Shown piece by piece: positions 405 to 24,811 of a DNA stretch of 64,000 bases (within the stretch, counting starts at the first letter, position 1; every line of letters starts with the position of its first letter). Position numbers and translations under genes: made by a program. The stretch comes from Platerodrilus igneus (lineage: Eukaryota > Arthropoda > Insecta > Coleoptera > Lycidae): positions 1-64,000 of the forward strand of contig JARFIW010000593.1 of assembly GCA_036346225.1 (NCBI GenBank). The letters are read 5' to 3'. The notes under the pieces are model-generated. The model searched no databases. It saw only the letters and a program-made list of their open reading frames with translations, and was not told where the DNA came from.

Positions 405-410
405 ATGGGA
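405..410. repeat. Left 6-bp target-site duplication (ATGGGA)
   Basis: ATGGGA lies immediately before the terminal AGTAGGTAGG and recurs immediately after the other terminus at 24806-24811. A 6-bp duplication is what Polinton/Maverick integrases are known to produce. Confidence 0.85.
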
Positions 411-423
411 AGTAGGTAGGTAA

Positions 424-503
424 GGCCGGTCCTAATTCAAAACGCGACAGACGTATTTTCCATGTGTAGAATACGTCTGTCACGTTTTGAATTAGGATCG
501 GCC
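424..503. repeat. Terminal hairpin inside the left terminus
   Basis: An 80-bp near-perfect palindrome lies 13 bp inside the element end. GGCCGGTCCTAATTCAAAAC pairs with a mirror copy ending at 503 around a short centre. It recurs at 24713-24792. The segment GTTTTGAATTAGGATCGG is reused several times further in. Confidence 0.8.
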
Positions 504-910
504 CTATATAATTTCAATGTAAAATAGTCGTGAAAACATTTCAATGTAAAATAGTTGTGAAAACATGAATTCTTATATACTTTCAATGAAAGATATTTCA
601 AAACACACGTATGTTGAAAAATAAGTGCAGAGAAGAATGTGTGTAGCTGTTTTGAATTCGGTTTTCTAGCGAGAAGTTACACGTGCACCGTTTTGAATTA
701 GGATCGGCGTTATACACTTTTAATGTAAAATGTGAAAATCTAAATTCTTTTCAAATGTAAAATACTTATGGGCACGTTTTGAATTAGGATCGACTTTATA
801 TTACTTTTAATGGAACATACATACTTCAAAACACACGTATGTTGAAAAATGTAAGTGCAGAGAAAATGTGTGTAAATGTATTGAATTTGGTTTTCTAGCT
901 AGAAGTTATA
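504..910 (+). repeat. Subterminal repeat cluster, left
   Basis: Short modules alternate here. CGTTTTGAATTAGGATCG occurs near 483, 692 and 776. A module of about 80 bp beginning CAAAACACACGTATGTTG and ending GGTTTTCTAGC occurs at about 599-675 and 831-900. TTTCAATGTAAAATAGT is repeated near 510 and 539. No open reading frame is visible. Such arrays could be integrase-binding or replication sites, which is inference. Confidence 0.7.
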
Positions 911-946
911 AAGTATGACAGATGCAAAATATCGCATTCAAGTCAA

Positions 947-1165
947 TTGTGTTTAATTAAAGTGGATTCTGATTTGTTTAGAGGCTGCAAATACACATGG
1001 GCCGGTTTCAATTCAAAATGTGTTCACTCTTGTGATAGGTTGAAAAGTGGGTTGGCAAAGTACGCAGATGGTGGTAATCTGCTATATAAGGAGATTGCTC
1101 CTAATATTAATTTAATTAGTCGAAGTTTACTGCATATATTTACATACAAACATGTATATAATTGA
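947..1165 (+). CDS. Small open frame of 72 codons, unknown
   Basis: A 72-residue open frame lies just upstream of the better supported gene at 1152 and overlaps its start. The identical peptide is present in the opposite arm at 23994-24212. The arms are so similar that this conservation means little. It has several cysteines (GCKYTW, CVHSC) but no motif I recognise. It may be a spurious frame or an upstream piece of the neighbouring gene. Confidence 0.2.
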   Translation: MCLIKVDSDLFRGCKYTWAGFNSKCVHSCDRLKSGLAKYADGGNLLYKEIAPNINLISRSLLHIFTYKHVYN

Positions 1166-1350
1166 TATTCAGGGATTTAAATACAAGAAAAACGAGTTTG
1201 TGTGCAAAGAAATTGCGGTTTTGGACTTGTTGGAAGGTGTTGTTTGGCATCAAATTTTTAAACTGCCAATGCAGTCTAGTTGTTTGAGTCAAGATCATAT
1301 AAAACATAACAACTGGGTGACAAGGAATCTTCAACGGCTGGAATGGTGTT

Positions 1351-1399
<49 letters not shown>

Positions 1400-1668
1400 C
1401 GCTTTATTTGAAGCAAATTATCCGACCCGGTGAAGAAGTATTTGTGAAGGGTCTAGAAAAGAAGAAATTGATTGAAACCTATCTAATGCAAAAAAACGTT
1501 GTAACTGATATGCTTGCACGAGGTTGTCCTAAGCTATCGGAGTTAAAAATCAACAACCGTTTAAAATATAACATCCATTGTTGTAGACACAGCAATAATA
1601 ATCTGCAATGTGCAAAACAAAATACCTTGTTATTAAAAGAATGGCTTGATAATAATAAAAAACAATAG
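1152..1668 (+). pseudogene. Unnamed Polinton-associated gene, left copy A (broken)
   Basis: The peptide starts MYIIDIQGFKY and continues through VCKEIAVLDL, IFKLP and WVTRN. After the TA tract it reads GEEVFVKGLEKKKLIETY, then GCPKLSELKINNR and a Cys/His-rich end (CCRHSNNNLQCAKQ, LLKEWL). I recall this order of motifs from unnamed proteins scattered in arthropod genomes but cannot name a function. The N-terminal acidic DIQGF pattern could suggest an RNase H-fold nuclease, which is weak inference. The frame breaks near 1326-1400 because of a 25-bp deletion and a 45-bp TA expansion. The right-arm copy keeps the missing residues (HGLSWDESS). Confidence 0.6.
1354..1398. repeat. TA microsatellite
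   Basis: About 45 bp of pure AT repeats lie inside copy A of the unnamed gene. The matching place in the right arm (near 23775) has only a short TATATAT, so expansion happened in this arm alone. Confidence 0.95.
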
Positions 1669-1714
1669 AAAGATTGTGTCTGTATTATTTATTTTAATAT
1701 AATTTTACAATGTT

Positions 1715-1855
1715 TGCAAGCAAATTATCCGACCCGGTGAAGAAGTATGTGTGAAGGGTATAGAAAAGAAGAAATGGATGGAAACCTATCTATTGCAAAA
1801 ACAAAATACTTTGTTATTAAAAGAATGGTTTGATAATAATAAAAAACGATAGAAA
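1715..1855 (+). pseudogene. Short partial duplicate of the unnamed gene
   Basis: This repeats the GCAAATTATCCGACCCGGTG segment and the Lys-rich stretch, then jumps to the C-terminal LLKEW part and lacks the middle. It sits 50 bp after copy A. The frame is broken and it is not expected to encode a product. A mirror copy lies at 23323-23457. Confidence 0.6.
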
Positions 1856-4470
1856 AGATTGTGTATGTATTATTATTGTAGTCAGTAAGAAATTCTTTAA
1901 TGCTGATGTCTGCAGAAAAAACAATTAAACTCAGACAGCACGAATGGGACTCTCAACCCTGAAAGCAATTATAATTGATCAACGCAATAGCTCTTTACTG
2001 GTTTTACAACATTTAACAAATTGTACAGATATCTCAAAAAATTTGCCAAAGACAGACAAACAGATAGGCAGACTGACTGCACCAATTTTCTCATTCTCGC
2101 TTTTAAAGAATAACAAGTCGTAGTTATTTAAATCGCGAACTCAGTTTATCTGCAAGAAATATATAAACGTGGAAATTTATGAAATGCTCCAACTTTAAAA
2201 AAAGCCACTATCATTATTCTTTCCTGACGAAAGATACTTTTAACAAAAGTTTTCATTTTTTTTTTATTTGTTCTATAGAACACAACTACAACTTGACAAT
2301 AAAGATTGTGCGATTATCACACACTTATCTTGAGTATATATAAAGATATTAAACAATAAGAACAGCAGAAAATTCAACCCATGTCAGACAGCTTTTTTCT
2401 TGTCAACGATGGTCTAGTCTAATGCTTCTTCAGCATTTGCATTTTCATATTTACGTACTGAAGGCAACTCTGCAATTTTAGATCACATTCATTTCTAATT
2501 TCAATTACAAAAAATATGAAAGCATCTATTTGAAATGCATTTCTAACTTTAATCGCAAAAAAATGAGAGCATCTATTCGAAATATGCACTCAGATTAAAA
2601 GTCAAAAATTGTTTTACACCGTTCTGTAAACTGAGATTACGTAGTTATTAAATCGGGAGTAATGTGAAATGAAACACACAATGTATTTTTCTTTATTGTA
2701 ATCTATAAAATACATATATATAATGTTATGTACTCTAGAATAAACATACTATAATTCACTTAAGTTCCCAAATATAAAAGAACAGTTCTAACTCACTCCA
2801 ACTCTGAACGGTTAAAAAAAATATTGCATTATCAATTCTATGAGGGCTGTCTTCTTCATCTTTGACGCGCGGTCGTTTCTGGTTGTTCTTCTTCGTGTTA
2901 ACTAAAAAAAAGATTCAAATGAATATTATATCAAGTAAATGCATTAAGAAAATTAAATCTATATATTAAGCTAACGAATACATACTCTGTATTGGTGTCA
3001 TTAGGTCGTACGTTGCAATTGGTAGATCTGCTCACGGCGTCAACGATTTTTTTACCAGTACTTAATTTGGATTGACTATAAACTACTCAATAATTTTAGC
3101 CCAATCACTATCATTATTCTTTCCTGACAAGGACAATTTTTTTTAAAAAAAAAAGGTTTTCATTTTTGATTTGTTCTATAGAACACACAACTACAACTTG
3201 ACAATAAAGATTGAAGGATTATCACACACACACATATCTTGAGTATATAAGGATATTAAACAACAAGAACAGCAGAAAATTCAACTCATGTAAGCAAGAA
3301 TTTAATGCTAAGGTATTGTCTAGATAGCAATTGTAGCAAAATATGAAATCTATAGAAAATTTAATAAAGCCAGTCATGTATAAATTTTTTTTAATGCTGA
3401 CATCCACAGGAAAAATAAAAAGCGAGAAATTTAATGCTAACATCAACAGAATAATAAATAAATCCACTTAGTCAGCATTAATGGAAGACCGGTCTGGCTT
3501 GAAACTGTGCACGCAGATATACCATATTTTAAAATTAAAGTTGTCAATTGCAAAACAAAAAAATTAAATTTTACCTAGAAATCATTTTGAAATATTTACT
3601 TTTTTTTCAGTACAACTGAAAGAACTTGACTTTTATACATTTTTTTAATCGATATCATAGACTTTTTTCTATACTGTTGGTAAAAAATCTACGTGAAGTA
3701 TTTATATTAAATAATAAACTGACCTGTTAGAAAAAATTAAAAATTTGCATCGTTTTCTGAAAAAAAATTGCGTACTTTTTCAGTACAACTGAAAGAACTT
3801 GAGTTTATACATTTTTTAATCGATATCAGACTGTACAGAAACAGTAATGTTTAATTATATCAGTCAAAAACATGATGTGTTTACTATTAAACAAAACAAA
3901 ATTGTTCTTAATCCAAGTGATGATAAAAGAATTCTTAGTACCTCAACCACTGATATATACGACCAGCGAGTACTGTGTTAAAAATTGTTTTCGTTGCAGA
4001 AATTAACATCAATTCCCGTCAATATTACTGTATTAGTCGATTAAGGCATGAGTTAATTTTTTTACAACGTTTCTTTTTATTCGCTTAGGGCAATGCAGAT
4101 AAGAAGTTAGAATTGAACACATTTTTTTATAATAAAATAAACCTTGATACAAAATCACATTCAGTTTTACTGAAAAGTATAGGTACTGCTCAGCAGAAAT
4201 AATGAATTACATTCATTGACTGAAAAGAAATTGCAAGAAGGCGCATAATAAAACCTAAATTAGATTAATTTCGTTTTATATTACTGCTAGCATAATTTAT
4301 TTTCCATAAAAAATTAACAAAAATTGACTTTATATGCATATATAGGGATATAGTAATTTGTGCGGGTTTATGTTTTACGCTAATCATGCTGAATAAGAAA
4401 AATTCTTTAGTACTATCAACGTACTGGAAAATGTTTTTCTTAATATCGGGTTTTTAAAAAAACCATGAGT
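1856..4470. other. Arm sequence without a recognisable gene
   Basis: This is non-coding arm DNA made of short dispersed repeats. Two direct copies of about 190 bp lie at 2205-2392 and 3108-3296; both contain ATTCTTTCCTGAC, TTGTTCTATAGAACAC and ACAGCAGAAAATTCAAC. A 50-bp module (CAGTACAACTGAAAGAACTT followed by TTAATCGATATCA) occurs at about 3606-3656 and 3779-3829. The motif AATGCTGA(C/T)(A/G)TC recurs near 1900, 3395 and 3430. I see no RNA gene. Confidence 0.6.
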
Positions 4471-4725
4471 GCGTGTAAATTATAATATTTTTCTTTAGAT
4501 TAATTTTTCGTTCAAAATTTGCTTTGTTTTATTTAAAATATTTCATATAATCATAATAAAAAAATAGCGCTGTAATGATAGTGTGTATTTTCTGTACACA
4601 TCATAAATCAAAGGTCGTATAAAACATTTTTATTATTATACTGCAAACAAGAATTTTTTTTAAGTAAACGCAACTGAATGAAAAAAATGATGTTGTATGC
4701 TAATTCCTTTTGCAGTTGTTTTGCT

Positions 4726-4807
4726 CAGAGTTGCCTTCAGTATGTAAATATTGGAAATGCTTGCATAGCGAATTGTTTGTCATAGTTACGTACTGAAGGC
4801 AACTCTG
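4726..4807. repeat. Stem-loop of arm module
   Basis: CAGAGTTGCCTTCAGTATGT (4726-4745) is followed 40 bases later by its inverted copy ending at 4807, a stem of about 22 bp. One side of the stem also occurs alone near 2455. The mirror is near 10308-10390. The function is unknown. Confidence 0.7.
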
Positions 4808-5068
4808 CAATTTTTTAGATCGCATGCACGATTCAAGCTTGAAAATCGTCTTGAATAAAAACGTAAATATAGGAGATTTTTTAACAATTGCATTCAAAGC
4901 AATTCGCTATGCAATTATTTTGATTTGTATGCTATTTCTTTTACAGTTGTTTTTGCTTAAGCGTTTTTCCGTAAAACTCAGCTGAATGAAAAAATTATGT
5001 GAGATTGTTGTTATTGGAAAATTAAAATTCAGTATTAATTTTTCTGATGATGAACGTGCTTTGTTCAG

Positions 5069-5280
5069 GCAAGAAACGGCTGGAATGGTGTTATCATATA
5101 TATAGAGCTTTATTTGAATCAAATTATCCGACCGGTGAAGAAGTATTTGTGAAGGGTTTAGAAAATAAGAAATTGATTGAAACCTTCACAAGTACGCATT
5201 TTTTCGTTTTGGATTTATCTAAAAATAGGATACCTTTCAATCTACCCGAGTTTAACTATATTAGCATAAATGTATTGTAG
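5069..5280 (+). pseudogene. Unnamed gene, left copy B (3' part, different tail)
   Basis: This copy starts at the same internal point as the other partial copies (ACGGCTGGAATGGTG) and encodes RALFESNYPTGEEVFVKGLE. It then diverges after KKLIETF into a different tail with FVLDLSKNRIPFNLPEF, ending at a stop at 5280. It lacks the Cys/His-rich end. In the mirror copy (9783-10033) the TA tract is expanded to about 47 bp. Confidence 0.5.
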
Positions 5281-5477
5281 AGAAAATAGTAGTAGTAACC
5301 GTTCTGTTTAAAAATCCAGTTTGTTATTGTTTAAAGATGAGTTAGCATAAGGTTGATGAGTATGTTTTCAATATTAACAATTGCATTGCGAAGTAAACTT
5401 TTTCACGCACGTTCAGTATTTCACTATTCATTTTACATTTTAATTAAATAAATGCAGTCCTAACGATTGTAGAAACA

Positions 5478-5790
5478 ACGGCTGGAATAGTGTTATCATA
5501 TATAGCGCTTTATTTGAAACAAATTATCCGACCCGGTGAAGAAGTATTTGTGAAGGGTTTAGAAAAGAAGAAATTGATTGCAACCTATATATAATGCAAA
5601 AACATTGTAACTGATATGCTTACACTAGGTTGTCCTAAGCTATCGGAGTTAAAAATCAACAATCGTTTAAAATATAACATCCATTGTTGTAGACACCGCA
5701 ATAATAATCTGCAATGCACAAAAACAAAATACCTTTTTTTTATTAAAAGAATGGCTTGATAATAATAAAAAAACAATAGAAAGATTTTGT
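5478..5790 (+). pseudogene. Unnamed gene, left copy C (broken)
   Basis: It begins at the same breakpoint (ACGGCTGGAATAGTG) and contains the PGEEVFVKGLEKKKLI stretch, the GCPKLSELK segment and the Cys/His-rich end. Frameshifts lie near 5590 and 5710. It directly abuts a truncated integrase fragment on the opposite strand. Mirror copy: 9283-9592. Confidence 0.55.
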
Positions 5791-5794
5791 CTGT

Positions 5795-5925
5795 GTTTAC
5801 TAATCCTCACACTGTCTTTAATTGAATATTTTTGGTATTTTGGTTGCAAGTTTGATGTGGGTAAATGATGATTTAAGAATAGTTTTTTTCATTTGATTTA
5901 TCAACTTTTACTAAAAGTGCGTGTA
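5795..5925 (-). pseudogene. Integrase C-terminal fragment
   Basis: A short minus-strand piece encodes KYSIKDSVRISKH, matching the more complete integrase at 6955-7075. It stops abruptly at both sides (next to copy C, and at a junction with GTGCGTGTAAAAATT), so it is a duplicated fragment. The mirror copy is at 9153-9273. Confidence 0.6.
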
Positions 5926-6284
5926 AAAATTAATAAACAACATTGACGGTTTTACTCTGAGACATTTTTTCAAAACTTGCTTTAATTTTTAATAAAATTT
6001 TTTATATATAATCATAAAAAATAGCGCTGTAATGATGGTGTATTTTCTGTACACACAGCATAAATCAAAGGTAGTATAAAAAACATTTGATTACTATACT
6101 GCAAGCAAGCAAATTTTTTCAGTAAACGCAGCTGAATGAAAAATAAGGTTAATGAGTATGTTTTTTTTTTCAATATTAACAATTTCATTGTCGAAGTAAA
6201 CTTTTTTTCACGCACGTTCAGTATTTCACTATTCATTTTACATTTTAATTAAATAAATGTAGTCCTAACGATTGTAGAAACAAC

Positions 6285-6640
6285 GGCTGGAATGAAGTTA
6301 TCATATAGCGCTTTATTTGAAGCAAATTATCCGACCCGGTGAAGAAGTATTTGTGAAGGGTTTAGAAAATAAGAAATTGATTGAAACCTATCTAATGCAA
6401 AACATTGTAACTGATATGCTTGCACTAGGTTGTCCTAAGCTATCGGAGTTAAAAATCAACAATCGTTTAAAATATAACATCCATTGTTATAGACACAGCA
6501 ATAATAATCTGCAATGCGCAAAACAAAAGAAAGATTTTGTCTGTATTATTTATTTTAATATAAGAATGGTTATATAATAATAAAAAAAAAACAATAGAAA
6601 AATTTTGTCTGTATTATTTATTTTAATATAATTTTACAAT
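6285..6640 (+). pseudogene. Unnamed gene, left copy D (3' part, open frame)
   Basis: This is the best preserved partial copy. The frame from about 6317 reads PGEEVFVKGLENKKLIETY, QNIVTDMLALGCPKLSELK and CYRHSNNNLQCAKQ, then runs into a diverged tail and stops at 6577. It lacks the N-terminal third seen in copy A (DIQGF to WVTRN) and begins at the same ACGGCTGGAATG breakpoint as copies B and C. Mirror copy: 8455-8785. Confidence 0.55.
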
Positions 6641-6725
6641 GTTAGCCTTACTAACTATTATTATTATAACAACTTCTAGCAAACATTATTTTTATCGATC
6701 CAGCTATTGTGTACGTTAGAGAAGC

Positions 6726-7625
6726 CTAACCATTTACAAAGACTTTATTTCCCCTCTTTCTTAGGACTTTTTCTACCAGGTAAATTCCTGGATGTTTAAC
6801 CTTTTGCAACTCCATTTCATAAAATGCACCTTTGATTTCTTTTTCGTCTTGATCTTCTAATATATATGTTGACGGATTGGTTACGTTTACCTTTTTAATC
6901 TTAAAAATTTCATTTGACCAGTTTGGCGTGTAACCTTTCGTAAATGCTTCCCTGTGTTTACTAATCCTCACACTGTCTTTTATTGAATATTTTGGTATTT
7001 TGCTTGCAAGTTTGATGTGGGTAAATGATGATTTAAGAATAGTTTTTTCAATTGATTTATCAACTTTTACAGGTTTGACTCCGATAGTATTGTGAACTGT
7101 ATTGTTGTATTGTTTCACAATATCGCTTAAATTTTTATCGAATTGTAAGAACCGTTCAGGTTAAACAAGCGCCACATTTTTCCTTTTAAAGTTCTAATTA
7201 CACGTTCCACAATGCATGCTTTCTTTGTAGAAAAAACACTATAATGGTTTATGCCATATGTCTGCATTAAGGATTGAAACTGTTTGTTATAATATTCTTT
7301 ACCAAAATCAGACTGCAAATTTCTTGGTGGATTTTTAAATTTATTTAAAATTGTTTTCATTGCAGCAGTAACATCAATACCCGTTTTACTTTTAAGTGGT
7401 ACAGCCCATACGTAATTGGAGAAACAATCAATAACTACTAAAATGTATTTAAATCCTTTGTTTGTTTGCGAATATGGTAGCATTTAAATCAAATCGGTCT
7501 GAAGAAGGTCATTTAAACCTTTTTTTACTATCACTTTGCGTCTCTTGAAATTTATTCTTGCTGGTTTATGAAGTTCATTTACTATATGCTCTTTCACTTT
7601 TGATTGAGCAACTATCATAATACTT
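6726..7625 (-). pseudogene. Polinton-type (retroviral-like) integrase, broken
   Basis: Read on the minus strand, the N-terminal part (about 7625-7487) encodes KEHIVNELHKPARINFKRRK and a segment ending LLQTDLI, which leads to the first catalytic Asp. The core (7483-7127) has YILVVIDCFSNYVWAVPLK, then LQSDFGKEYYN (second Asp) and ERVIRTLK (Glu), giving a DDE triad. The C-terminal part (7118-6726) has VRISKHREAFTKGYTPNW and a chromodomain-like YLVEKVLRKRGNKVFVNG that ends early. Frame breaks lie near 7485 and 7120. This type catalyses strand transfer of element ends and is typical of Polintons. Only the C-terminal part is duplicated in the right arm (7946-8338). Confidence 0.8.
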
Positions 7626-7928
7626 TTTTTTCTAATCAGGATTTATTAAATACAATTAATAAATACTTCCATGTTTGAATGTCGTGGGCCCACTTGCTTT
7701 GAAAGGAACTTTTAATATAAAATCAAGAAAGATTGTGGTATTGTTTATAAGTCCGGAACCGGAGCAAACGTTGAACACCCTCCTTTAAGTGGATCATGAT
7801 TGTTTATATTTACCTTCAAGTGTAAAACTTCTTGGATTGCCCAACCTGAATCCTTTTCGCTAAATTCCTATAATCGCTTCGAAATCTTGTCTAATAGGTT
7901 CTCCTTATACCACCGCTTGAAATTGGTA
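7137..7928. other. Asymmetric centre (loop) of the palindrome
   Basis: This 0.79-kb stretch has no inverted counterpart. The arms meet it at TTTTTATCG (left) and GGTAAAAATTTAAG (right). It carries the catalytic part of the integrase and a fragment of another Polinton protein, all on the minus strand, so it reads as a continuation of the left arm's coding strand. Confidence 0.75.
7787..7928 (-). pseudogene. Fragment of a Polinton polymerase-region protein
   Basis: The minus strand from about 7928 reads FKRWYKENLLDKISKRL, one stop, then EFSEKDSGWAIQEVLHLKVN and INNHDPLKGG before a stop near 7787. The pattern W-Y-x-E-N then SGW, L-x-V-N-I-N and P-L-x-G is one I associate with the N-terminal region of Polinton family-B DNA polymerase or its neighbouring protein. 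That assignment is from memory and moderate. The C-terminus is absent and integrase sequence follows after about 160 bases. Confidence 0.45.
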
Positions 7929-7945
7929 AAAATTTAAGCAATATT

Positions 7946-8338
7946 GTGAAACAATACAACAATACAGTTCACAATACTATCGGAGTCAAACCTGTAAAAG
8001 TTGATAAATCAAATGAAAAAACTATTCTTAAATCATTATTTACCCACATCAAACTTGCAAGCAAAATACCAAAATATTCAATTAAAAACAGTGTGAGGAT
8101 TAGTAAACACAGGGAAGCATTTACGAAAGGTTACACGCCAAACTGGTCAAATGAAATTTTTAAGATTAAAAAGGTAAACGTAACCAATCCGTCAACATAT
8201 ATATTAGAAGATCAAGACGAAAAAGAAATCAAAGGTGCATTTTATGAAATGGAGTTGCAAAAGGTTAAACATCCAGGAATTTACCTGGTAGAAAAAGTCC
8301 TAAGAAAGAGGGGAAATAAAGTCTTTGTAAATGGTTAG
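7946..8338 (+). pseudogene. Integrase C-terminal fragment, right arm
   Basis: An open frame of 130 codons is nearly identical to the minus-strand 6726-7118 frame (a few substitutions, such as SIEK versus SNEK and SIKD versus SIKN). It holds the post-catalytic region (VRISKHREAFTKGYTPNW) and the start of a chromodomain-like segment (YLVEKVLRKRGNKVFV). No catalytic core precedes it because the arm ends at 7929. Confidence 0.8.
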
Positions 8339-8454
8339 GCTTTTCTAACGTACACAATAGCTGGATCGATAAAAATAATGTTTGCTAGAAGTTGTTATAA
8401 TAATAATAGTTAGTAAGGCTAACATTGTAAAATTATATTAAAATAAATAATACA

Positions 8455-8785
8455 GACAAAATTTTTCTATTGTTTTTTTTTTTATTATTATATAACCATT
8501 CTTATATTAAAATAAATAATACAGACAAAATCTTTCTTTTGTTTTGCGCATTGCAGATTATTATTGCTGTGTCTATAACAATGGATGTTATATTTTAAAC
8601 GATTGTTGATTTTTAACTCCGATAGCTTAGGACAACCTAGTGCAAGCATATCAGTTACAATGTTTTGCATTAGATAGGTTTCAATCAATTTCTTATTTTC
8701 TAAACCCTTCACAAATACTTCTTCACCGGGTCAGATAATTTGCTTCAAATAAAGCGCTATATGATAACTTCATTCCAGCCGTTGT
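8455..8785 (-). pseudogene. Unnamed gene, right copy D
   Basis: Mirror of 6285-6640. The frame (8712-8488) keeps KGLENKKLIETY, GCPKLSELK and CYRHSNNNLQCAKQ. It is 5'-truncated like its partner. Confidence 0.55.
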
Positions 8786-9152
8786 TTCTACAATCGTTAG
8801 GACTACATTTATTTAATTAAAATGTAAAATGAATAGTGAAATACTGAACGTGCGTGAAAAAAAGTTTACTTCGACAATGAAATTGTTAATATTGAAAAAA
8901 AAAATATACTCATCAACCTTATTTTTCATTCAGCTGCGTTTACTGAAAAAATTTGCTTGCTTGCAGTATAGTAATCAAATGTTTTTTATACTACCTTTGA
9001 TTTATGCTGTGTGTACAGAAAATACACCATCATTACAGCGCTATTTTTATGGTTACATATAAAAAATTTTATTAAAAATTAAAGCAAGTTTTGAAAAAAT
9101 GTCTCAGAGTAAAACCGTCAATGTTGTTTATTAATTTTTACACGCACTTTTA

Positions 9153-9273
9153 GTAAAAGTTGATAAATCAAATGAAAAAAACTATTCTTAAATCATCATT
9201 TACCCACATCAAACTTGCAACCAAAATACCAAAAATATTCAATTAAAGACAGTGTGAGGATTAGTAAACACAG
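9153..9273 (+). pseudogene. Integrase C-terminal fragment (duplicate), right arm
   Basis: Mirror of 5795-5925, encoding KYSIKDSVRISKH followed by unrelated sequence. It is a truncated duplicate with no catalytic residues. Confidence 0.55.
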
Positions 9274-9282
9274 ACAAAATCT

Positions 9283-9962: not shown

Positions 9963-10013
<51 letters not shown>

Positions 10014-14935: not shown

Positions 14936-16210
14936 TAATACTCTGTTTATTGAGAAGCAGTGTGATAATCGACCTTATATTATGGTGAAATTAATGGATA
15001 GAGACATTACCGGTCTTCTAGATTCGGGATGCACTACCTCAGTGGTAGGATCCTTAGCCCTTTCAATTGTTAGAGAATTAGACTTGAGAATTTTAGTTCA
15101 GCAAAACGGGTATCACTACAGCTGATGGTTCAATAAAGTCTGTTGTAGGCTCAGTAGATTTGCCAATTTGTATAGGTAATGATTGCCGCATCCTTAATGC
15201 ATTAGTGGTTCCATCCCTACCGCATACATTTATTTTCGGTAGTGACTTTGCAAAATTATTTGGTGTAGTTGCTGACTTTAGAAGTAATAATTGGTTTATC
15301 CAAAGTAATGCTGGGAACGACATAGGGTATATAGGTTCGTTTTCCATCCCTTTGAACACTGAAGATTCTTTATGTGGTTTACATGACCTTTCAGATGCTC
15401 AATGCGCAGGCACAAGAGTTAATAAATTCATTTAGTGAGATTAGCAGCGAAGATAGATTAGGACGAACTCACCTAATCGAATTGGACATAGACACAGGCA
15501 ATGCCAAACCCTTCCACAAGAAACCATATGTCATGTCACCATATATGGGTAAGATATTGAATGAGGAATTGGACGACATGCTTAGACTTAAAGTTATAGA
15601 ACCGTGTACTAGTCCGTGGTCCTCTCCAGTTTTGTTGGTTAAGAAGGCAGATGGAGAATATCGCTTCTGTTTTGATGGTAGAACCCTGAACGACTTAACT
15701 GTTCATGATTCGTACTTCTGAACGTAGATAGAATTCTCAATATGTTGAGAGGTGCGAACTACATTTCGTCACTGGATTTGAGAAAATCGTTTTGGCAAAT
15801 CCTCTTAGTGAGTCGTCTAAGGATAAGACTGCCTTCAGTGTTATTTCACGAGGACAATTTAGATTTACATGCATGCCATTTGGGTTGAAGAATGCTGCGC
15901 AGACGCAACAACGTTTAGTAGATGTAATTTTTGGTCCACGTTTTGAACCCCATGTATTTTGTTATTTGACGACATAATTTTATGTTCGTCATCTTTTGAA
16001 GAACATCTAAAGTTATTGGTAGAGGTTAAGCAACGGTTAAAGGAAGCTAACCTTACTATAAATATAAGTAAATGTGAATTTTTTAAAAAGACACTTAAAT
16101 TTTTGGGTTATATAGTAGGTTCTAACTCACTTCGTACAGATCCCGATAAGGTGTCGGCGATGGTTAACTTTCCCGTCCGAAAACCACAACGGAGATTAAA
16201 AGGTTTATAG
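14936..16210 (+). pseudogene. Gypsy-1 protease and reverse transcriptase (frameshifted)
   Basis: The protease active-site pattern LLDSGCTTSVVG is near 15017-15050 (Asp-Ser-Gly in place of the usual Asp-Thr-Gly). The polymerase follows: CFDGRTLND near 15670, LDLRKSFWQ near 15775, MPFGLKNAAQTQQR near 15874-15915. The catalytic Tyr-Leu-Asp-Asp box near 15961-15975 has lost one base, so the frame breaks exactly there. More breaks are near 15100, 15720, 15795 and 16175. The enzyme would copy element RNA into DNA in the particle. Confidence 0.85.
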
Positions 16211-18066
16211 GAATGTGCAGCTGGTACCGGCGCTTTATAAAGAATTTTTCGTCTTTAGTTTCGCCTATTAATGACCTCATTAAAAGTAAGAAAAAAGGTC
16301 AAACTGTGAACTGGAGTGCGGAAGCAGAAAATTCATTTGTGCTGATCAAGCAAGCATTAGTTTCTGCACCTCTTCTTTCGCAGCCAGACTACTCGGCACC
16401 CTTTATTGTGGAGTGTGACGCAAGCAACACTGGGTTAGAGCTGTGTTGATTCAGAATGTAAACGGAGAAGAGCGTGTAATTTCGACGCAAGCAAAACCCT
16501 GAGCCGATTGAGCGCAATTATTCCACCACTGAAAGAGAGTGTTTAGCAGTTATTTTTGCAATTGAGAAATTCCGTCCGTGGGTAGAAGGAGTTCGCTTCA
16601 CAGTTGTCACCGATCATTTTCGTTACTTTGGTTGAGTAATCTTCAGAATCCAACTGGAAAACTCGCCAGATGGTCAGTTCGATTAAGGCAACACTCATTT
16701 GATTTGGTGCATAGAAAAGGAAAGTTCAATATAGTTCCAGATTGTCTTAGTCGTGGTGTTCCTTTAGAAAATCCAGAAGTTAATTTAGTAGAGATTAAAC
16801 TTGATACAGTAGACTTGTGGTATGAATCTTTGAGAAAGAAAATTTTGTTGTCACCCAAAAGCTACCCCAGTGGAAAGTGGAAGATGGGTTTATTTATAAG
16901 TTTATACCTTCCTATTACCGCATTCGGCGAATGTTGTAGAGTGGAAACACTTAGTGCCAAAGTCTCAGCGTTTAGATGTCATTAAATCATGTCATGACCC
17001 CCTTCAGCAGGACATTTTGGTTCCTTAAAACTTTGTCTCGTGTTCAAGAATTATATTATTGGCCAAAGATGATCTTTGACGTACGTAAATTTTGTAGGAA
17101 ATGTTTGATTTGCGGTGCTCAAAACCACCCAATAAAGGTCCCTTGGGATGATGGGAAAGGAGAAAGAGGTTGGACTACCATTCCAAACCATTGCATTAGA
17201 TTTGATGGGTCCGTTTCCTCGTTCCAAACGCGGACATAAATGGCTCTTAGTTGTTGGTGATTGGTTCTCAAGTATTCGATTTTGCAACCTTTACGTAGTG
17301 CCACGGCACATTTGATCGAGAAATTTTGGAGGAAAAAGTATTTCTTGTCTATGGAGTACCACAGTTTGTTATTTGTGATAATGGTCCACAATTAATCGGA
17401 CGTATTTTTAAAGCTTTGTGTGCAAGGTACGAAATTCAAAAGATTTGGTATAATGCTGTTTATGCTCCTCAATGCAATTTTGTGGAAAGAATCAATAAGA
17501 CAGTTGGTACAGCAATCCGTTCATACGTAGAAGAACATGATACGTGGGATATGGAGATATCAAAGATCCAATACGCAATCAACTCAGCAAAACATGAGTC
17601 CACCAACTATTCGCCAAATTTTTAGTTTTTGGTCGTCAGGTACCTTTAAGTGGAAAAGCTTATAATGATAATTTTATACCGGGTGAAGATGTTGATGTCG
17701 TCTCCAGTAGTAGACCTTCTTATGTTTTGGATCGTCAACCTTTGTTTGATATTTTTGGAAATGTCCGTGAAAATTTGCATGTAGCTTACCAACGTTCGAG
17801 TAAACGCTACAATCTTAGGAGAAGAGACATTTCATTCCGAGTCGGAGAAAGTGTTTGGAGAGCTAATAAGGTCCTCTCGAGTGCTAGTGATAAATTTTCC
17901 GCTAAGTTAGCCCCTAAGTTCGTTATGAGTAAAGTTCGGAAAAACATTCCAATTTAGTATATGAGTTAGAGAACGAAGATGGGACAAGAGCAGGAAATGG
18001 CACGTAAAGGACTTGAAACCAGTTGAAGCGTCGTATCCAAAGGAAAATGATGATCCTGACGATTAA
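16211..18066 (+). pseudogene. Gypsy-1 RNase H and integrase (frameshifted)
   Basis: RNase H: ECDASNTG near 16410, [10 protein letters not shown] near 16535 and the VTDHF equivalent near 16610. Integrase zinc-binding region: AGHFGSL near 17010 and CRKCLICGAQ near 17095-17125. Integrase core: Asp in FDGSV/DLMG context near 17200, CDNGPQL near 17370 and QCNFVERINK (catalytic Glu) near 17470-17500. A basic C-terminal segment (RRRDISFRVGESVW) resembles the GPY/F region of Gypsy integrases. Breaks lie near 16440, 16500, 16620, 16990, 17245, 17620, 17950 and 17990. The stop is at 18064-18066. Confidence 0.85.
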
Positions 18067-19217
18067 TTCGGTCCGATCATCTCTTTGATATTAAGTAATG
18101 ACGTAGTGGTTTGTTTTGTTTTGTTCCGATTTTTAATTTAGTGTCGTTTCACTAATTTTGAGTATTTTATTTGAGAAGTGAAATAAGTGGTTAGAGATTT
18201 TGTAAATTTTGTAGGTTTGAGGTGTGCCTTGGTGTGCACGCTGGACATTTTGCTCAGCGTTGCTCAGAGATGTGTTTGGAGGATGTCTTTGACAGATATC
18301 CTTACAATGTAGAAGTAGGTGGGCTATTTAATTGTTGGTCCTGATTTCTACATATCGAGGTAGAGAGAATATTAGATTATTCTTTCCCTTGTTCCTTTTG
18401 ACCGTTCGAAGTTCTTTGATTTGATAAGGTCAAAGTTGGCTTGGTGAGTCTCACCATTTGCTCCATCACTAATGAGATCAGTTGTCTGTTAGAACTTAGT
18501 GATAGGATATTCAGTAGGGTGTAGGATAGTACAGCCCTGACTGGCTCAGTTTTGTATTTGAATTTGATAAGTAACCTTATGGTTAGGTTACCTTTGTTTT
18601 GATCATCTCTTTGCGATGAAGCGATGATATTTTGTATTTGGATTAGATAAGTAACCTTATGGTTAGGTCACTTTTGTTTTGATTATCACTTTGTGATGAT
18701 GGTGTTTAAATATAGACCTATTAGTAGGGTCTTACTTTTGATTATCACCTTGTAGTGATGATGTTTTGAATAGTTATGCTGTCTTGATGAGGAAGCATTC
18801 CTTTTTTTTGTAGATAGAGCTAAATGAGCTCCTGGAAGTGAAGTTTTTTTTGAAATTAGAAGTAAATCGTAAGTGTTTGGTTATAGGTAAGAAATATTAG
18901 CCTTGTTAGAAGTATGAATCTCAAGTCAGGAAATATTGTAAATTTGAATTTTTTGTCCCGTGGAGTGTTTGACTTTCTAATTTGACCCTCCCAATTTTGA
19001 TTATTACCGATTGTGACTCCCGATTTTGTCTCCGATGGACGTCAGGTACGCGTAGTTACCAACACACTCATTTGTAAATATTTGTCCCCCCCATTTAAAT
19101 AAATTTATAAAATTGCATAGTTAGTTAGGAAGGTAGGAAAGGCTAGTATTGTTATAAAAAATTTTTTTGTATTTGTTATATTTGAAGTTTTTCTAAAAAA
19201 AAAAAATTTTTTCTTTT
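18067..19217 (+). other. Gypsy-1 3' untranslated region with tandem repeats
   Basis: A non-coding stretch between the pol stop and the polypurine tract. Two and a half units of about 78 bp lie at 18550-18765, each with GATAAGTAACCTTATGGTTA followed by a TTTTGAT(C/T)ATC(A/T)CTTTG(C/T)GATGA block that can form small hairpins. No envelope-like gene is seen. Confidence 0.7.
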
Positions 19218-19230
19218 AGGAAAGGGGTAG
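19218..19230 (+). promoter_or_regulatory. Gypsy-1 polypurine tract
   Basis: AGGAAAGGGGTAG directly abuts the 3' LTR, the expected site for plus-strand priming. Confidence 0.8.
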
Positions 19231-21012
19231 TGTAACAATTTTATTTTAGCAGTAAAAGAACCTATTCATTAAACGTACAATGAATATTGAAATACCTTTA
19301 TTAACTAAAATAAAGATTCGAGTAACAATCAAATTTTATAGTATTACTATATCTAGGATTAGTAGTCTATTTGTTTCGGAGTTCGGTGCAATTCCACAGC
19401 CACTGGCGCGCGTGTGAGAGGTTCGAGAACCCCACTTATGATCCTCCCACCATGCAAGAACGCAGCGAGCGCACTCGTCGATAGTTAAAGGCAGCGTGAA
19501 GATGCATTCAAAAGAATGGCGAGTGACCTCCGGGTCGCCTTATTTTGGTGAAACACTTCCTGAGTAACGGTTAGTACTTAATCCACATTTTGCATATTCG
19601 TTATCATATTAGCTAATTTAAAATTTATTTAGCGCAACAATACGTCAGAAATTGCAACGATAAATTAGAAACCGCACGACCACTTTGAAGTTACAATTTA
19701 GAAACCTTAACTTATGGACTACGCAATGAAAGATTATATTTGTAAATAGAATTAGACAACGGAGGAGTACGCTATGAAGTAATGCTGCCGTGAACCAATG
19801 GAGAAATCCGCTTCGCTCCTACATCTGTATTAAAGCATGGAAAACAAGCATATTTAGCTGCAGGCCCCGCACTGCGAAGTTGTTTCCATTGCAACCAAGG
19901 ACGACAGCCGGTATTGGGTTCGTAATAGAATTAAGAATTTCCTCAGTACTTCCTTCTGAAAGTACATTATTTCATTTTGTTTGTTGGATATACAAAATTG
20001 TTATTCAGTTTACCTGTGATTAGACTGGTTTTCCCCAGTATCGGGTTTGATTTCACTTAGTTCCGTAAATATGTGACTACACGTGGCTACAACATAAATT
20101 AACAGCTGCTATTACGTCACCTGTTTGTTTGAACAATGCCGTCAACAATTGCACAATGGCTTACAGATGTTTAGCATTACAGTACTGCCACTTTTGATAA
20201 AATTAGAGAATATCTTGGTGATTCTTTTGACTTCAAACTAATATTAATTTTGTTAAATTAATGAGAAAATTTCGTATATTCATTTGTAAGTGACCTACAC
20301 AGATCTGGTTGGGTTATAAAAACCTTAATATTGTTAGTTACACTGAACTGTAATATATTTGAGTAAGGATCAGTTGATAAACCTTACAACAATTTTGCAA
20401 GAATATCAAATATTTATTTTATTTAATTATAATGAAATTTTATTTACTGAAACAAAGAAAATTCTTTCTAGTAAATTAATAATCTACATTTAAAGTTTTT
20501 ATTCTGATCTGGTTTGATCAGACCTGATAAACAAAAGACAGCAAGAGTTAAATTTTATGATTCCAGTATGTAGGAAATATTCTCTATGCATTTTAGGTAT
20601 ACTTGAGGGACGCAAATAGTGTTCCCATTTTTTAGGTGACTTAACTATTATTCTTTCTTACAGGAGCAGTGTCTTATTCTGTTAAGACAAGTTTGTATGT
20701 CAGCGAAGGCGATCTTTTTCTTTGGGTCTCCAAGTCCGCCCTTAGAAATTTGCTATGCCATTAATATAAATCAATCTGGACTTGGTGGCGCCTGTTTGTT
20801 TTAGTTTGAGTGTGACCCCCACAGATTTCGACTTACCCCCATTGCTCATAGCTCTACCCAAGGAATAGACCCCTAGTTACGTCGGAAGATTTAGTTTTGC
20901 AGACACCTAACTTGAAGCATGGTGTTAATAAGGTTTCACTAGCGCCCATGCGTGTGGCGAGTTGAAGCCACTAGTAGTAGTAGTGTCAGCCCAAGCAAAA
21001 AAATATGCAGCA
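19231..21012 (+). repeat. Gypsy-1 3' LTR
   Basis: A 1,782-bp near-identical copy of 10976-12759, TG...CA ended, followed by the AGGT target duplication and then resumed Polinton arm. Confidence 0.92.
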
Positions 21013-22418
21013 AGGTTTATTTTATTATAAAAAAATGTGTTCAATTCTAACTTCTTCTCTGCATTGCCCTAAGCGAATAAAAAGAAACGTTGTAAAAAAA
21101 TTAACTCATGCCTTAATCGACTAATACAGTAATATTGACGGGAATTGATGTTACTTTCTGCAACGAAAACAATTTTTAACACAGTACTCGCTGGTCGTAT
21201 GTATCAGTGGTTGAGGTACTAAGAATTCTTTTATCATCACTTGGATTAAGAACAATTTTGTTTTGTTTAATAGTAAACACATGTTTTTGACTGATATAAT
21301 TAAACATTACTGTTTCTGTACAGTCTGATATCGATTAAAAAATGTATAAACTCAAGTTCTTTCAGATGTACTGAAAAAGTACGCAATTTTTTTTTTCAGA
21401 AAACGATGCAAATTTTTTAATTTTTTCTAACAGGTCAGTTTATTATTTAATATAAATACTTCACGTAGATTTTTTACCAACAGTATAGAAAAAGTCTATG
21501 ATATCGATTAAAAAATGTATAAAAGTCAAGTTCTTTCAGTTGTACTGAAAAAAGTAAATATTTCAAAATGATTTCTAGGTAAAATTTAATTTTTGTTTTG
21601 CAATTGACAACTTTAATTTTAAAATATGGTATATACGCTGCACAGTTTCAAGCCAGACCGGTCTTCCATTAATGCTGACTAAGTGGATTTATTTATTATT
21701 CTGTTGATGTTAGCATTAAATTTCTCGCTTTTTATTTTTCCTGTGGATGTCAGCATTAAAAAAATTTATACATGACTGGCTTTATTAAATTTTCTATAGA
21801 TTTCATATTTTGCTACAATTGTTATCTAGACAATACCTTAGCATTAAATTCTTGCTTACATGAGTTGAATTTTCTGCTGTTCTTGTTGTTTAATATCCTT
21901 ATATACTCAAGATATGTGTGTGTGTGATAATCGTTCAATCTTTATTGTCAAGTTGTAGTTGTGTGTTCTATAGAACAAATCAAAAATGAAAACCTTTTTT
22001 TTTTTTAAAAAAATTGTCCTTCTCAGGAAAGAATAATGATAGTGATTGGGCTAAAATTATTGAGTAGTTTATAGTCAATCCAAATTAAGTACTGGTGAAA
22101 AAATCGTTGACGCCGTGAGCAGATCCACCAATTGCAACGTACGACCTAATGACACCAATACAGAGTATGTATTCGTTAGCTTAATATATAGATTTAATTT
22201 TCTTAATGCATTTACTTGATATAATATTCATTTGAATCTTTTTTTAGTTAACACGAAGAAGAACAACCAGAAACGACCGCGTCAAAGATGAAGAAGACAG
22301 CCCTCATAGAATTGATAATGCAATATTTTTTTAACCGTTCAGAGTTGGAGTGAGTTAGAACTGTTCTTTTATATTTGGGAACTTAAGTGAATTATAGTAT
22401 GTTTATTCTAGAGTACAT

Positions 22419-22465
<47 letters not shown>

Positions 22466-23320
22466 TTTTATAGATTACAATAAAGAAAAATACATTGTGT
22501 GTTTCATTTCACATTACTCCCGATTTAATAACTACGTAATCTCAGTTTACAGAACGGTGTAAAACAATTTTTGACTTTTAATCTGAGTGCATATTTCAAA
22601 TAGATGCTCTCATTTTTTTTTTGCGATTAAAGTTAGAAATGCATTTCAAATAGATGCTTTCATATTTTTTGTAATTGAAATTAGAAATGAATGTGATCTA
22701 AAATTGCAGAGTTGCCTTCAGTACGTAAATATGAAAATGCAAATGCTGAAGAAGCATTAGACTAGACTATCGTTGACAAGAAAAAAGCTGTCTGACATGG
22801 GTTGAATTTTCTGCTGTTCTTATTGTTTAATATCTTTATATGTACTCAAGATATGTGTGTGATAATCGCTCAATCTTTATTGTCAAGTTGTAGTTGTGTT
22901 CTATAGAACAAATAAAAAAAAAAAAACTTTTGTTAAAATTACCCTTGTCAGGAAAGAATAATGATAGTGGCTTTTTTTAAAGTTGGAGCATTTCATAAAT
23001 TTCCACGTTTATATATTTCTTGCAGATAAAATGAGTTCGCGATTTAAATAACTACGACTTGTTATTCTTTAAAAGCGAGAATGAGAAAATTGGTGCAGTC
23101 AGTCTGCCTATCTGTTTGTCTGTCTTTGGCAAATTTTTCGAGATATCTGTACAATTTGTTAAATGTTGTAAAACCAGTAAAGAGCTATTGCGTTGATCAA
23201 TTATAATTACTTTCAGGGTTGAGAGTCCCATTCGTGCTGTCTGAGTTTAATTGTTTTTTCTGCAGACATCAGCATTAAAGAATTTCTTACTGACTACAAT
23301 AATAATACATACACAATCTT
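21013..23320 (-). other. Right-arm sequence without a recognisable gene
   Basis: Mirror of about 1856-4141, starting with the AGGT duplication at 21013-21016. It carries the same dispersed direct repeats in inverse order and no gene. Confidence 0.6.
22432..22462. repeat. TA microsatellite
   Basis: About 31 bp of TA repeats. The left-arm partner near 2710-2720 is short, so the tract expanded only here. Confidence 0.95.
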
Positions 23321-23322
23321 TT

Positions 23323-23457
23323 CTATGGTTTTTTATTATTATCAAACCATTCTTTTAATAACAAAGTATTTTGTTTTTGCAATAGATAGGTTTCCATCCA
23401 TTTCTTCTTTTCTATACCCTTCACACATACTTCTTCACCGGGTCGGATAATTTGCTT
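23323..23457 (-). pseudogene. Short partial duplicate of the unnamed gene, right arm
   Basis: Mirror of 1715-1855 with the same internal deletion. Confidence 0.55.
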
Positions 23458-23507
23458 CGCAAACATTGTAAAATTATATTAAAATAAATAATACAGACAC
23501 AATCTTT

Positions 23508-24007
23508 CTATTGTTTTTATTATTATCAAGCCATTCTTTTAATAACAAGGTATTTTGTTTTGCACATTGCAGATTATTATTGCTGTGTCTACAACAATGG
23601 ATGTTATATTTTATACGGTTGTTGATTTTAACTCCGATAGCTTAGGACAACCTCGTGCAAGCATATCAGTTACAACGTTTTTTTGCATTAGATAGGTTTC
23701 AATCAATTTCTTCTTTTCTAGACCCTTCACAAATACTTCTTCACCGGTCGGATAATTTGCTTCAAATAAAGCGCTATATATGATAACACCATTCCAGCCG
23801 TTGAAGATTCATCCCAAGAAAGACCATGAATATTCCTTGTCACCCAGTCGTTATGTTTTATATGATCTTGACTCAAACAACTAGACTGCATTGGCAGTTT
23901 AAAATTTGATGCCAAACAACACCTTCCAACAAGTCCAAAACCGCAATTTCTTTGCACACAAACTCGTTTTTCTTGTATTTAAATCCCTGAATATCAATTA
24001 TATACAT
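23508..24007 (-). pseudogene. Unnamed Polinton-associated gene, right copy A
   Basis: The most complete version of the gene. It starts at the ATG of MYIIDIQGFKY (24007) and keeps WVTRNIHGLSWDESSTAG, which the left copy lost by a 25-bp deletion. It continues through KQIIRP, the Lys-rich segment, GCPKLSELK and the Cys/His-rich end. Single-base indels break the frame near 23900, 23745 and close to the 3' end. Function is unrecognised. Confidence 0.6.
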
Positions 24008-24212
24008 GTTTGTATGTAAATATATGCAGTAAACTTCGACTAATTAAATTAATATTAGGAGCAATCTCCTTATATAGCAGATTACCACCATCTGCGTACT
24101 TTGCCAACCCACTTTTCAACCTATCACAAGAGTGAACACATTTTGAATTGAAACCGGCCCATGTGTATTTGCAGCCTCTAAACAAATCAGAATCCACTTT
24201 AATTAAACACAA
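23994..24212 (-). CDS. Small open frame of 72 codons, right-arm copy
   Basis: The same 72-residue frame as 947-1165, upstream of and overlapping the start of right copy A. Doubtful as a gene; see the left copy. Confidence 0.2.
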   Translation of the reverse strand: MCLIKVDSDLFRGCKYTWAGFNSKCVHSCDRLKSGLAKYADGGNLLYKEIAPNINLISRSLLHIFTYKHVYN

Positions 24213-24299
24213 TTGACTTGAATGCGATATTTTGCATCTGTCATACTTTATAACTTCTAGCTAGAAAACCAAATTCAAAACATCTACACACATTTTCTC

Positions 24300-24712
24300 T
24301 GCACTTACATTTTTCAACATACGTGTGTTTTGAAGTATGTATGTTCCATTAAAAGTAATATAAAGTCGATCCTAATTCAAAACGTGCCCACAAGTATTTT
24401 ACATTTGAAAAGAATTCAGGTTTTCACATTTTACATTAAAAGTATATAACGCCGATCCTAATTCAAAACGGTGCACGTGTAACTTCTCGCTAGAAAACCG
24501 AATTCAAAACAGCTACACACATTCTTCTCTGCACTTACATTTTTCAACATACGTGTGTTTTGAAATATCTTTCATTGAAAGTAAAATAAAGCCGATTCTA
24601 ATTCAAAACGTGCCCACAAGCATTTTACATTGAAAGTATATAAGAATTCATGTTTTCACAACTATTTTACATTGAAATGTTTTCACGACTATTTTACATT
24701 GAAATTATATAG
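24300..24712 (-). repeat. Subterminal repeat cluster, right
   Basis: Mirror of 504-910, with the same CGATCCTAATTCAAAACG and CAACATACGTGTGTTTTGAA modules. Confidence 0.7.
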
Positions 24713-24792
24713 GGCCGATCCTAATTCAAAACGTGACAGACGTATCCTACACATGGAAAATACGTCTGTCGCGTTTTGAATTAGGACCGGCC
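24713..24792. repeat. Terminal hairpin inside the right terminus
   Basis: An 80-bp near-palindrome equivalent to 424-503, 13 bp inside the element end at 24805. Confidence 0.8.
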
Positions 24793-24805
24793 TTACCTAC
24801 CTACT

Positions 24806-24811
24806 ATGGGA
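24806..24811. repeat. Right 6-bp target-site duplication (ATGGGA)
   Basis: Exact copy of 405-410, directly after the terminal CCTACCTACT. Confidence 0.85.

What the first reader, a model, noticed from the sequence alone, without database searches (positions are those of the whole stretch)
405..24811. Giant palindromic Polinton integrated as a unit with a 6-bp target duplication
The element has perfect AGTAGGTAGG/CCTACCTACT termini and identical ATGGGA flanks. Inside, two 6.8-kb arms are inverted copies of the same, integrase-bearing end. A normal Polinton has two different ends joined by a capsid/polymerase body. Here one end is present twice, and the target duplication shows that the palindrome itself was the integrated molecule. 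I know of no named Polinton subfamily with this architecture.
Basis: partly seen in the sequence, partly recalled or inferred. Interest (0 to 1): 0.9.

Follow-up and report, generated by a model that had tools for sequence, protein, structure and literature searches.

The report
Palindromic Polinton that spread as unit
A virus-like DNA transposon (a Polinton) has lost most of its genes and become a near-perfect mirror image of one end, and this mirror-image form has inserted at several places in the host genome, which suggests that a DNA palindrome can travel as a mobile element.

Summary
The 24.4-kb interval is a ~14.35-kb palindromic element (two 6.7-kb arms, ~99.1% alike by substitutions; 0.79-kb single-copy loop) plus a younger 10.0-kb LTR retrotransposon in the right arm. 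Ends and the 6-bp duplication ATGGGA are exact. The integrase core is single copy, in the loop, and broken.

The duplication alone does not show that the palindrome integrated; any Polinton has inverted ends. The host genome does: 19 of 40 scored matches to a joint-spanning probe span the joint (window included). In the 11 loci I read, it falls at the same nucleotide, and three of them (window, C1311, C1030) have different perfect 6-bp duplications. Full-length Polintons with the same ends exist (one of 16.3 kb, 774-bp inverted repeats, with integrase, family B polymerase and capsid hits), and so do non-palindromic relatives with an integrase-polymerase deletion fusion and longer inverted repeats, the likely parents.

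Best reading: a non-autonomous Polinton made palindromic by one fold-back template switch, then replicated and integrated in trans. New variant of a known kind. Copy-back on extrachromosomal DNA is inferred, not shown.

The parts
405..410 (.). left copy of the 6-bp target duplication ATGGGA
411..7137 (+). left arm of the palindrome (terminus AGTAGGTAGG)
424..503 (+). subterminal hairpin: 33 base pairs with one mismatch, 12-nt loop; the same sequence is at the right end (read, not folded)
   Evidence: DNA fold -35 kcal/mol, z -10.6; right end printed
6682..7633 (-). integrase gene, collinear with residues 4-319 of a 320-aa relative (P0130) but broken (in-frame stop, two frame breaks); core in the loop, C-terminal part and chromodomain in the left arm
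7138..7926 (.). single-copy loop; 7138-7748 = integrase start and upstream, about 7741-7926 = piece from the N-terminal side of the polymerase gene, joined by an internal deletion
7926..7927 (.). palindromic joint (ATTGG | TAAAAATTTAAGC); at the same nucleotide in the 11 joint loci read
7927..10975 (-). right arm, inner part (inverted copy of 4140-7137); holds the integrase C-terminal copy 7934-8382 (+)
10976..21012 (+). LTR retrotransposon inserted later in the right arm (not part of the Polinton); AGGT on both sides; RNase H hit above and zinc knuckle just below the Pfam cut-off, 66-69% DNA identity to the Gypsy-type elements at 31-47 kb
   Evidence: the site is uninterrupted in the C129 copy
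21013..24805 (-). right arm, outer part (inverted copy of 411-4146), terminus CCTACCTACT
24806..24811 (.). right copy of the 6-bp target duplication ATGGGA

Best explanation
The element is a non-autonomous, palindromic derivative of a Polinton/Maverick family that is abundant in this genome. Steps: (1) a full Polinton (16.3 kb and 774-bp TIRs in the copy read end to end) lost its middle, so that the start of the integrase gene was fused to the N-terminal part of the polymerase gene; (2) its inverted ends grew to about 5 kb; (3) one fold-back template switch joined the polymerase piece to the inverted integrase C-terminus at a 2-nt (TA) match, giving 6.7-kb arms around a 0.79-kb loop; (4) this palindrome, whose own integrase is broken, was copied and integrated at new sites by proteins of other Polintons acting in trans, leaving 6-bp duplications. 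Shown: the structures, the shared joint, the distinct duplications, the presence of full-length relatives. Inferred: the order of steps, the trans supply, and that step 3 happened on extrachromosomal protein-primed replication intermediates (a displaced strand folding back), as in copy-back defective genomes.
For: Joint: 19 of 40 scored matches (of 1377 candidates) span it at 93-100% identity, the window itself and C129 included; 20 stop at it and 1 lies on the arm side only. In the 11 joint-bearing loci read (window included) the joint is at the same nucleotide, with the 18 bases across it identical and the 48 bases around it differing at 0-5 places; 3 of 3 non-palindromic relatives lack it. 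Perfect, different 6-bp duplications at three joint copies: ATGGGA, C1311 GGTTGT, C1030 GGCGTG. Loop lies between both arms in 6 of 8 further joint loci read at the centre. Full-length Polinton C1233: 16,323 bp, TIR 774 bp at 97.5%, GTCATT on both sides, with rve, DNA_pol_B_2 and double-jelly-roll hits; C60 has double-jelly-roll and phospholipase A2-like hits and an A32-like ATPase hit just below the Pfam cut-off. Loop 1-611 matches the integrase side and loop 604-789 the polymerase side of C1233. The terminal 918 bp are no more diverged than the rest of the arms (8/918 against 44/5753, Fisher p 0.69), as expected if both arms arose by one copying. Arms are older than the nested LTR element (52/6671 against 4/1779, p 0.008).
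Against: The tree of loops does not separate palindromic from non-palindromic copies (2 changes, one origin in 23% of bootstrap trees, 105 of 500 shuffles as low), so a single origin rests on the identical joint. C1124 carries the joint but has inverted host flanks and no target duplication, so that copy was reshaped on the chromosome or misassembled. For C926, C904 and C791 no terminus lay in the stretches I chose, and 8 of the 19 joint matches were not read at all. C1030 is asymmetric (9.3 kb). C129 is probably the other allele and its outer left arm is missing. No extrachromosomal form was observed. The chromodomain frame break is shared by both arms, so the parent was probably already damaged. 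The C1233 polymerase lies in pieces, so the helper supply is inferred, not shown.
Confidence: 0.8

Rival explanations
1. The palindrome first formed on the chromosome: a long-TIR Polinton already integrated had its inverted repeats extended inward by fold-back repair or break-induced replication, and was only later mobilised.
For: TIRs of many lengths exist in the genome: 0.77 kb (C361), at least 1.5 (C671), 2.2 (C565), about 3.5 (C1397), about 5 (C1369; right arm of C1420), 5.3-6.7 with indels (C1328), 6.7 kb (window). C1124 is a palindrome that runs into host DNA on both sides (218 of 218 bp of the fetched left flank, 99%). Streptomyces linear replicons lengthen TIRs by a break-induced-replication-like route (PMC7205883, passages).
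Against: Would leave the old terminal TIR more diverged than the newly copied part; it is not, though gene conversion could hide that. Cannot by itself explain the same joint at loci with different target duplications.
Confidence: 0.25
2. Joint copies were spread by segmental duplication of host DNA, not by transposition.
For: C129 shares the right flank of the window (98.4% over 190 bp) and is an allele or duplicate; C1124 has duplicated flanks.
Against: Window, C1311 and C1030 have different flanks and different perfect 6-bp duplications.
Confidence: 0.05
3. Assembly or read artefact (hairpin reads).
For: Artificial palindromes arise in whole-genome-amplified long-read libraries (PMC6218980, search listing).
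Against: Arms differ at 0.8-0.9% of sites and by many indels, an LTR element sits in one arm only, flanks are different, and the joint recurs on many contigs.
Confidence: 0.02
4. Addition to the main reading rather than a contrary one: the palindrome is favoured because its single strands snap back into a self-complementary duplex, which would start a new round of protein-primed synthesis without a partner strand (a replication parasite of full Polintons).
For: 1503 places (up to 2 mismatches; 0 in the reversed control) match the polymerase-side pattern of the non-palindromic relatives, which also counts any full copies; long TIRs recur across members.
Against: No functional evidence. The palindromic class may well be rarer than the non-palindromic one; its whole-genome count was never obtained.
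Confidence: 0.3

Closest known systems
Polinton/Maverick (full-length elements of the same genome, e.g. C1233)
   Same: AGTAGG...CCTACT ends, 6-bp target duplications, integrase of about 300 aa, same subterminal sequence
   Different: Full element has 774-bp TIRs and capsid, polymerase and other gene hits; the palindrome has 6.7-kb arms and only a broken integrase and a polymerase fragment
Vertebrate Mavericks (PMC8097293, section 7 and passages)
   Same: End motifs of the (AGT)2//(ACT)2 kind, 6-bp duplications
   Different: Reported TIRs of intact elements 46-1447 bp, mean 402; here the arms make up about 94% of the element
Cryptophyte Polinton-like viruses (PMC12220804, passages)
   Same: TIRs of hundreds to thousands of bp (search filter 100 bp to 8 kb), short duplications of 4-6 bp; so long TIRs as such are known
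   Different: The word palindrome does not occur in the main text; whether any has arms close to half its length I could not see (supplements not available)
Insect Sf Mavericks (PMC5803895, passages)
   Same: Integrase with chromodomain; polymerase with a predicted endonuclease VII domain (weak hit also in C1233); capsid-type protein with PLA2 domain
   Different: No palindromic form appears in the passages read
Copy-back/palindromic defective genomes of protein-primed replicons (adenovirus incomplete particles, yeast pGKL1 hairpin plasmid; recalled, not read)
   Same: One end present twice in mirror image; would arise by strand fold-back during protein-primed synthesis
   Different: Those are extrachromosomal; here the palindrome is a genomic family
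Streptomyces linear replicon TIR expansion (PMC7205883, passages)
   Same: Terminal inverted repeats lengthened by recopying one arm
   Different: Bacterial replicon, not integrated
ODIRA hairpin-capped inverted fragments (PMC10766183, abstract and outline)
   Same: Template switch at short inverted repeats between strands
   Different: Host chromosome amplification, no transposon ends

Membership tests
Polinton/Maverick | 6-bp target site duplication | tested here: met
   Window ATGGGA. Ten further elements with both ends read: 9 perfect (C565, C1397, C1420, C361, C671, C1328, C1311, C1030, full copy C1233), C1369 with one mismatch; C1124 has none
Polinton/Maverick | AG...CT terminal inverted repeats with AGT-type end motif | tested here: met
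   AGTAGGTAGG/CCTACCTACT; published motif in PMC8097293
Polinton/Maverick | retroviral-type integrase with chromodomain, no N-terminal zinc finger | tested here: met
   rve E 3.9e-15; relatives about 310 aa with rve, many with Chromo; pieces collinear incl. chromodomain part. Gene broken here
Polinton/Maverick | protein-primed family B polymerase | tested here: not met
   Only a fragment in the loop, 92% identical over 39 residues to the N-terminal side of the C1233 polymerase region; C1233 has DNA_pol_B_2 hits, one above and one below the cut-off. So the window is a derivative, not an autonomous member
Polinton/Maverick | capsid, ATPase and protease genes | tested here: not met
   None above cut-off in the arm ORFs scanned (17, part of the 77 ORFs of 60 aa or more listed); capsid and A32-like ATPase hits are in full relatives; no protease hit in the ORFs scanned there either
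Ginger transposons | 4-bp duplication, TGTNR ends, integrase zinc finger (PMC2836005, passages) | tested here: not met
   6-bp duplication, AGT ends; five integrase relatives scanned show no zinc-finger domain and the N-terminal piece aligns to their start
Copy-back defective genome | extrachromosomal palindromic replication product | not testable with these tools
   Only a genome assembly was available

The most novel reading that the evidence does not exclude
Palindromic geometry is itself an adaptation: a self-complementary Polinton whose single strands snap back to full-length duplex replicates faster than its helper, so that a defective-interfering genome has become a heritable, genome-spread transposon family, with step-wise growth of inverted ends as the path to it.
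Probability: 0.3. Interest if true: 0.85.

Novelty: new variant of a known kind. Interest (0 to 1): 0.7.

Why it matters
Maverick particles have not been observed (abstract start of PMC8097293). A palindrome that integrates repeatedly through its two identical ends is a fossil of how Polinton DNA is copied: it is what fold-back during protein-primed strand-displacement synthesis predicts. The series of inverted-repeat lengths in one genome turns that idea into something that can be tested by counting, dating and looking for free DNA. It also suggests that a long palindrome, usually thought unstable (recalled), can persist and spread in a genome.

Tried and rejected
Rejected: Ginger or another integrase transposon (duplication length, ends, no zinc finger). 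Rejected: an autonomous palindromic Polinton (integrase broken, other genes not found). Rejected: the target duplication as proof of palindromic integration; the shared joint is the evidence. Rejected: read artefact.

Led nowhere: IMG/VR scans with the integrase piece, alignments A1 and A2 and the terminus pattern (none); phage records (none); homologues of the repeated piece 1321-1668 (none among the 8000 candidates scored); tRNA and Rfam scans of the window (none). The prokaryote collection gave one distant contig. Ten literature searches showed no paper on a palindromic Polinton among the titles and abstract starts listed; not every matching paper was listed, the library lacks most subscription papers, and Kapitonov and Jurka 2006 is not held. 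A whole-genome count of the joint was asked for eight times and never answered. The tree did not resolve palindromic from deletion copies.
Full report
1. Observation. A self-comparison shows two pairs of inverted segments, 411-4146/24805-21011 and 4140-7137/10976-7927, and a direct pair 10976-12759/19231-21012. The direct pair are LTRs of a retrotransposon with TG...CA ends and an AGGT duplication; inside it Pfam gives an RNase H hit and a zinc knuckle just below the cut-off, and its DNA is 66-69% identical to the Gypsy-type elements further right in the window. Taking the LTR element as a later guest, the two inverted pairs become one: arms 411-7137 and 7927-24805 with a single-copy loop 7138-7926; net size about 14.35 kb.

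2. Age. Arms differ at 52 sites over 6671 bases (hand count without a misaligned AT-run stretch and edge columns; arm lengths as denominators; tested), LTRs at 4 of 1779; p = 0.008. The terminal 918 bp are no more diverged than the remainder (8/918 against 44/5753, p = 0.69). If a normal Polinton had integrated first and been made palindromic much later, its original terminal repeats should be the older part. Gene conversion between arms could hide this.

3. Genes. The loop carries the rve core. Its protein search gave 13 relatives among 15 candidates; the two species named by a source are Exocentrus adspersus and Molorchus minor (longhorn beetles, recalled). A second search with the Exocentrus protein gave 680 relatives, 120 listed. 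Against the 132 proteins so fetched, the N-terminal piece, core and C-terminal pieces hit 123, 132 and 120. The order is collinear through loop and left arm; the right arm has only the C-terminal part. There is an in-frame stop, a frame break close to the arm/loop border and a frame break at the chromodomain present in both arms; the last predates the palindrome unless spread by conversion. Seventeen other ORFs of the arms (7, 10; one search lists 77 ORFs of 60 aa or more in the whole interval) gave no Pfam family above its cut-off.

4. Ends. 424-503 can fold into a hairpin of 33 pairs with one mismatch (z -10.6); the same sequence is at the right end. A 20-base motif from it recurs, with up to 5 mismatches, at 11 places, all in the outer ~670 bp of the two ends, none elsewhere in the 64 kb. 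Whether other Polintons have such hairpins I did not establish.

5. The genome. After 12 unanswered tries, the host genome (2.71 Gb, 1723 contigs, unnamed) was searched. The terminal 856 bp gave 82 matches among 40 scored of 2913 candidates. I took 20 stretches and 15 smaller ones; 18 loci came with the searches.

6. Full-length Polintons. C1233 418458-434780 is 16,323 bp with 774-bp TIRs (97.5%) and GTCATT on both sides. Its ORFs give rve, double-jelly-roll capsid, and DNA_pol_B_2 in two separate ORFs, one above and one below the cut-off, the first with a weak endonuclease VII hit; the polymerase is thus in pieces. C60 gives double-jelly-roll and phospholipase A2-like hits and an A32-like ATPase just below the cut-off; C1365 a double-jelly-roll hit. 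In C1233, C1365 and C60 arm 1-1307 is followed by arm 5871-6724 and loop sequence up to 611; C1710 has arm 1-1307 and 5871-6644 but no loop match in the 9.95 kb read. Only C1233 was read to its other end.

7. Deletion class. C1420, C1369 and C1328 carry loop 1-789 and then continue into polymerase sequence instead of the palindromic joint. Loop 604-789 and the continuation match C1233's polymerase side (L033 1956-2142 and 2143-2716), loop 1-611 its integrase side; the short loop ORF is 92% identical over 39 residues. The fusion shares a few bases with both sides. Inverted matches: about 5 kb in C1369; 3.0 kb (left, lacking 2.5 kb of the right) against 5.5 kb in C1420; 5.3-6.7 kb with indels in C1328, by my reading of the pieces. 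Other relatives: 0.77 kb (C361), at least 1.5 (C671), 2.2 (C565), about 3.5 (C1397). A pattern of polymerase sequence running past the joint occurs at 1503 places with up to 2 mismatches (0 in the reversed control); it counts deletion copies and any full ones together. In a tree of the integrase segment the three full-length copies split from the six deleted or palindromic ones with 99/98 support (9 rows; the bootstrap had not settled).

8. Palindromic class. The joint probe spans in 19 of 40 scored matches: C593 (window), C129, C1311, C904, C975, C926, C1154 twice, C1030, C791, C1174, C195, C1032, C1124, C954, C1056, C187, C924, C1457; 20 stop at the joint and C1466 lies on the arm side. I hold sequence of 11 of the 19; in these the joint is at the same nucleotide (18 bases across it identical; 0-5 differences from the window in 48 bases), and the 3 deletion copies lack it. 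Around the centre, C1311, C904, C1154 twice, C1030 and C791 show arm-loop-inverted arm; C975 has a truncated loop and C926 has lost most of it. C1311 (437184-451328, 14.1 kb) is flanked by GGTTGT, C1030 (2006500-2015771, 9.3 kb, one arm much shorter) by GGCGTG. For C926, C904 and C791 the stretches I chose held no terminus. C129 shares the window's right flank (98.4% over 190 bp), is uninterrupted where the window has the LTR element, and its left arm stops at the equivalent of window 1530 next to unrelated sequence: an allele or duplicate, not an independent insertion. C1124 has inverted host flanks and no duplication. The loops do not group by class.

9. Mechanism. The same joint at sites with different 6-bp duplications means that the palindrome moved after it formed. 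Its own integrase is broken and its polymerase is a fragment, so the proteins most likely come from other Polintons. The joint (TA common to both parents) looks like one template switch onto an inverted copy. On a protein-primed linear molecule a nascent or displaced strand folding back would give this in one step; on a chromosome, fold-back repair would as well. The uniform divergence favours the first; C1124 and the range of TIR lengths keep the second alive. Precedents: terminal-protein plasmids proposed to replicate by snap-back (PMC1864894, passages), TIR growth in Streptomyces (PMC7205883, passages), ODIRA (PMC10766183, abstract), and recalled adenovirus and pGKL1 palindromes. Long TIRs as such are known in Polinton-like viruses (PMC12220804, passages).

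10. Verdict. A Polinton derivative of a new shape, with likely parents in the same genome and evidence of spread as a unit at three sites with their own duplications. The shape and spread are well supported; the replicative origin and any advantage are hypotheses.

Noticed in passing
28181-46620: Two Gypsy-type LTR retrotransposons in tandem, 99.1% identical over 10.3 kb, sharing a middle LTR (LTRs 28181-30318, 36343-38478, 44494-46620).
   Followed up: partly
G000:C1124:771700-793000 (L017-L019): A joint-bearing copy with an extra arm, inside a palindrome that extends into host flanks (99% over 763 bp of L017 against L019, of which 218 bp are flank).
   Followed up: partly
1354-1398, 9964-10010, 22422-22462: Three (AT)n runs, each present in one arm only.
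   Followed up: no
26475-27044: Minus-strand ORF with a PHD-like zf-HC5HC2H domain, E 1e-14, near the element.
   Followed up: no
5790-5889 and 9175-9274: Weak integrase C-terminal remnants mirrored in both arms.
   Followed up: partly
25058-25711: Two direct copies of about 320-335 bp, 81% alike, beside the element.
   Followed up: no
L001 1-6591 (QIJL01000129.1): Contig in a Flavobacteriales MAG encoding a distant integrase of the same kind (30% identity); perhaps a Polinton-like virus binned with a bacterium.
   Followed up: partly
L027 5849-7233 (G000:C671): Centre of this relative matches its own reverse complement at 95-99% in several registers.
   Followed up: no
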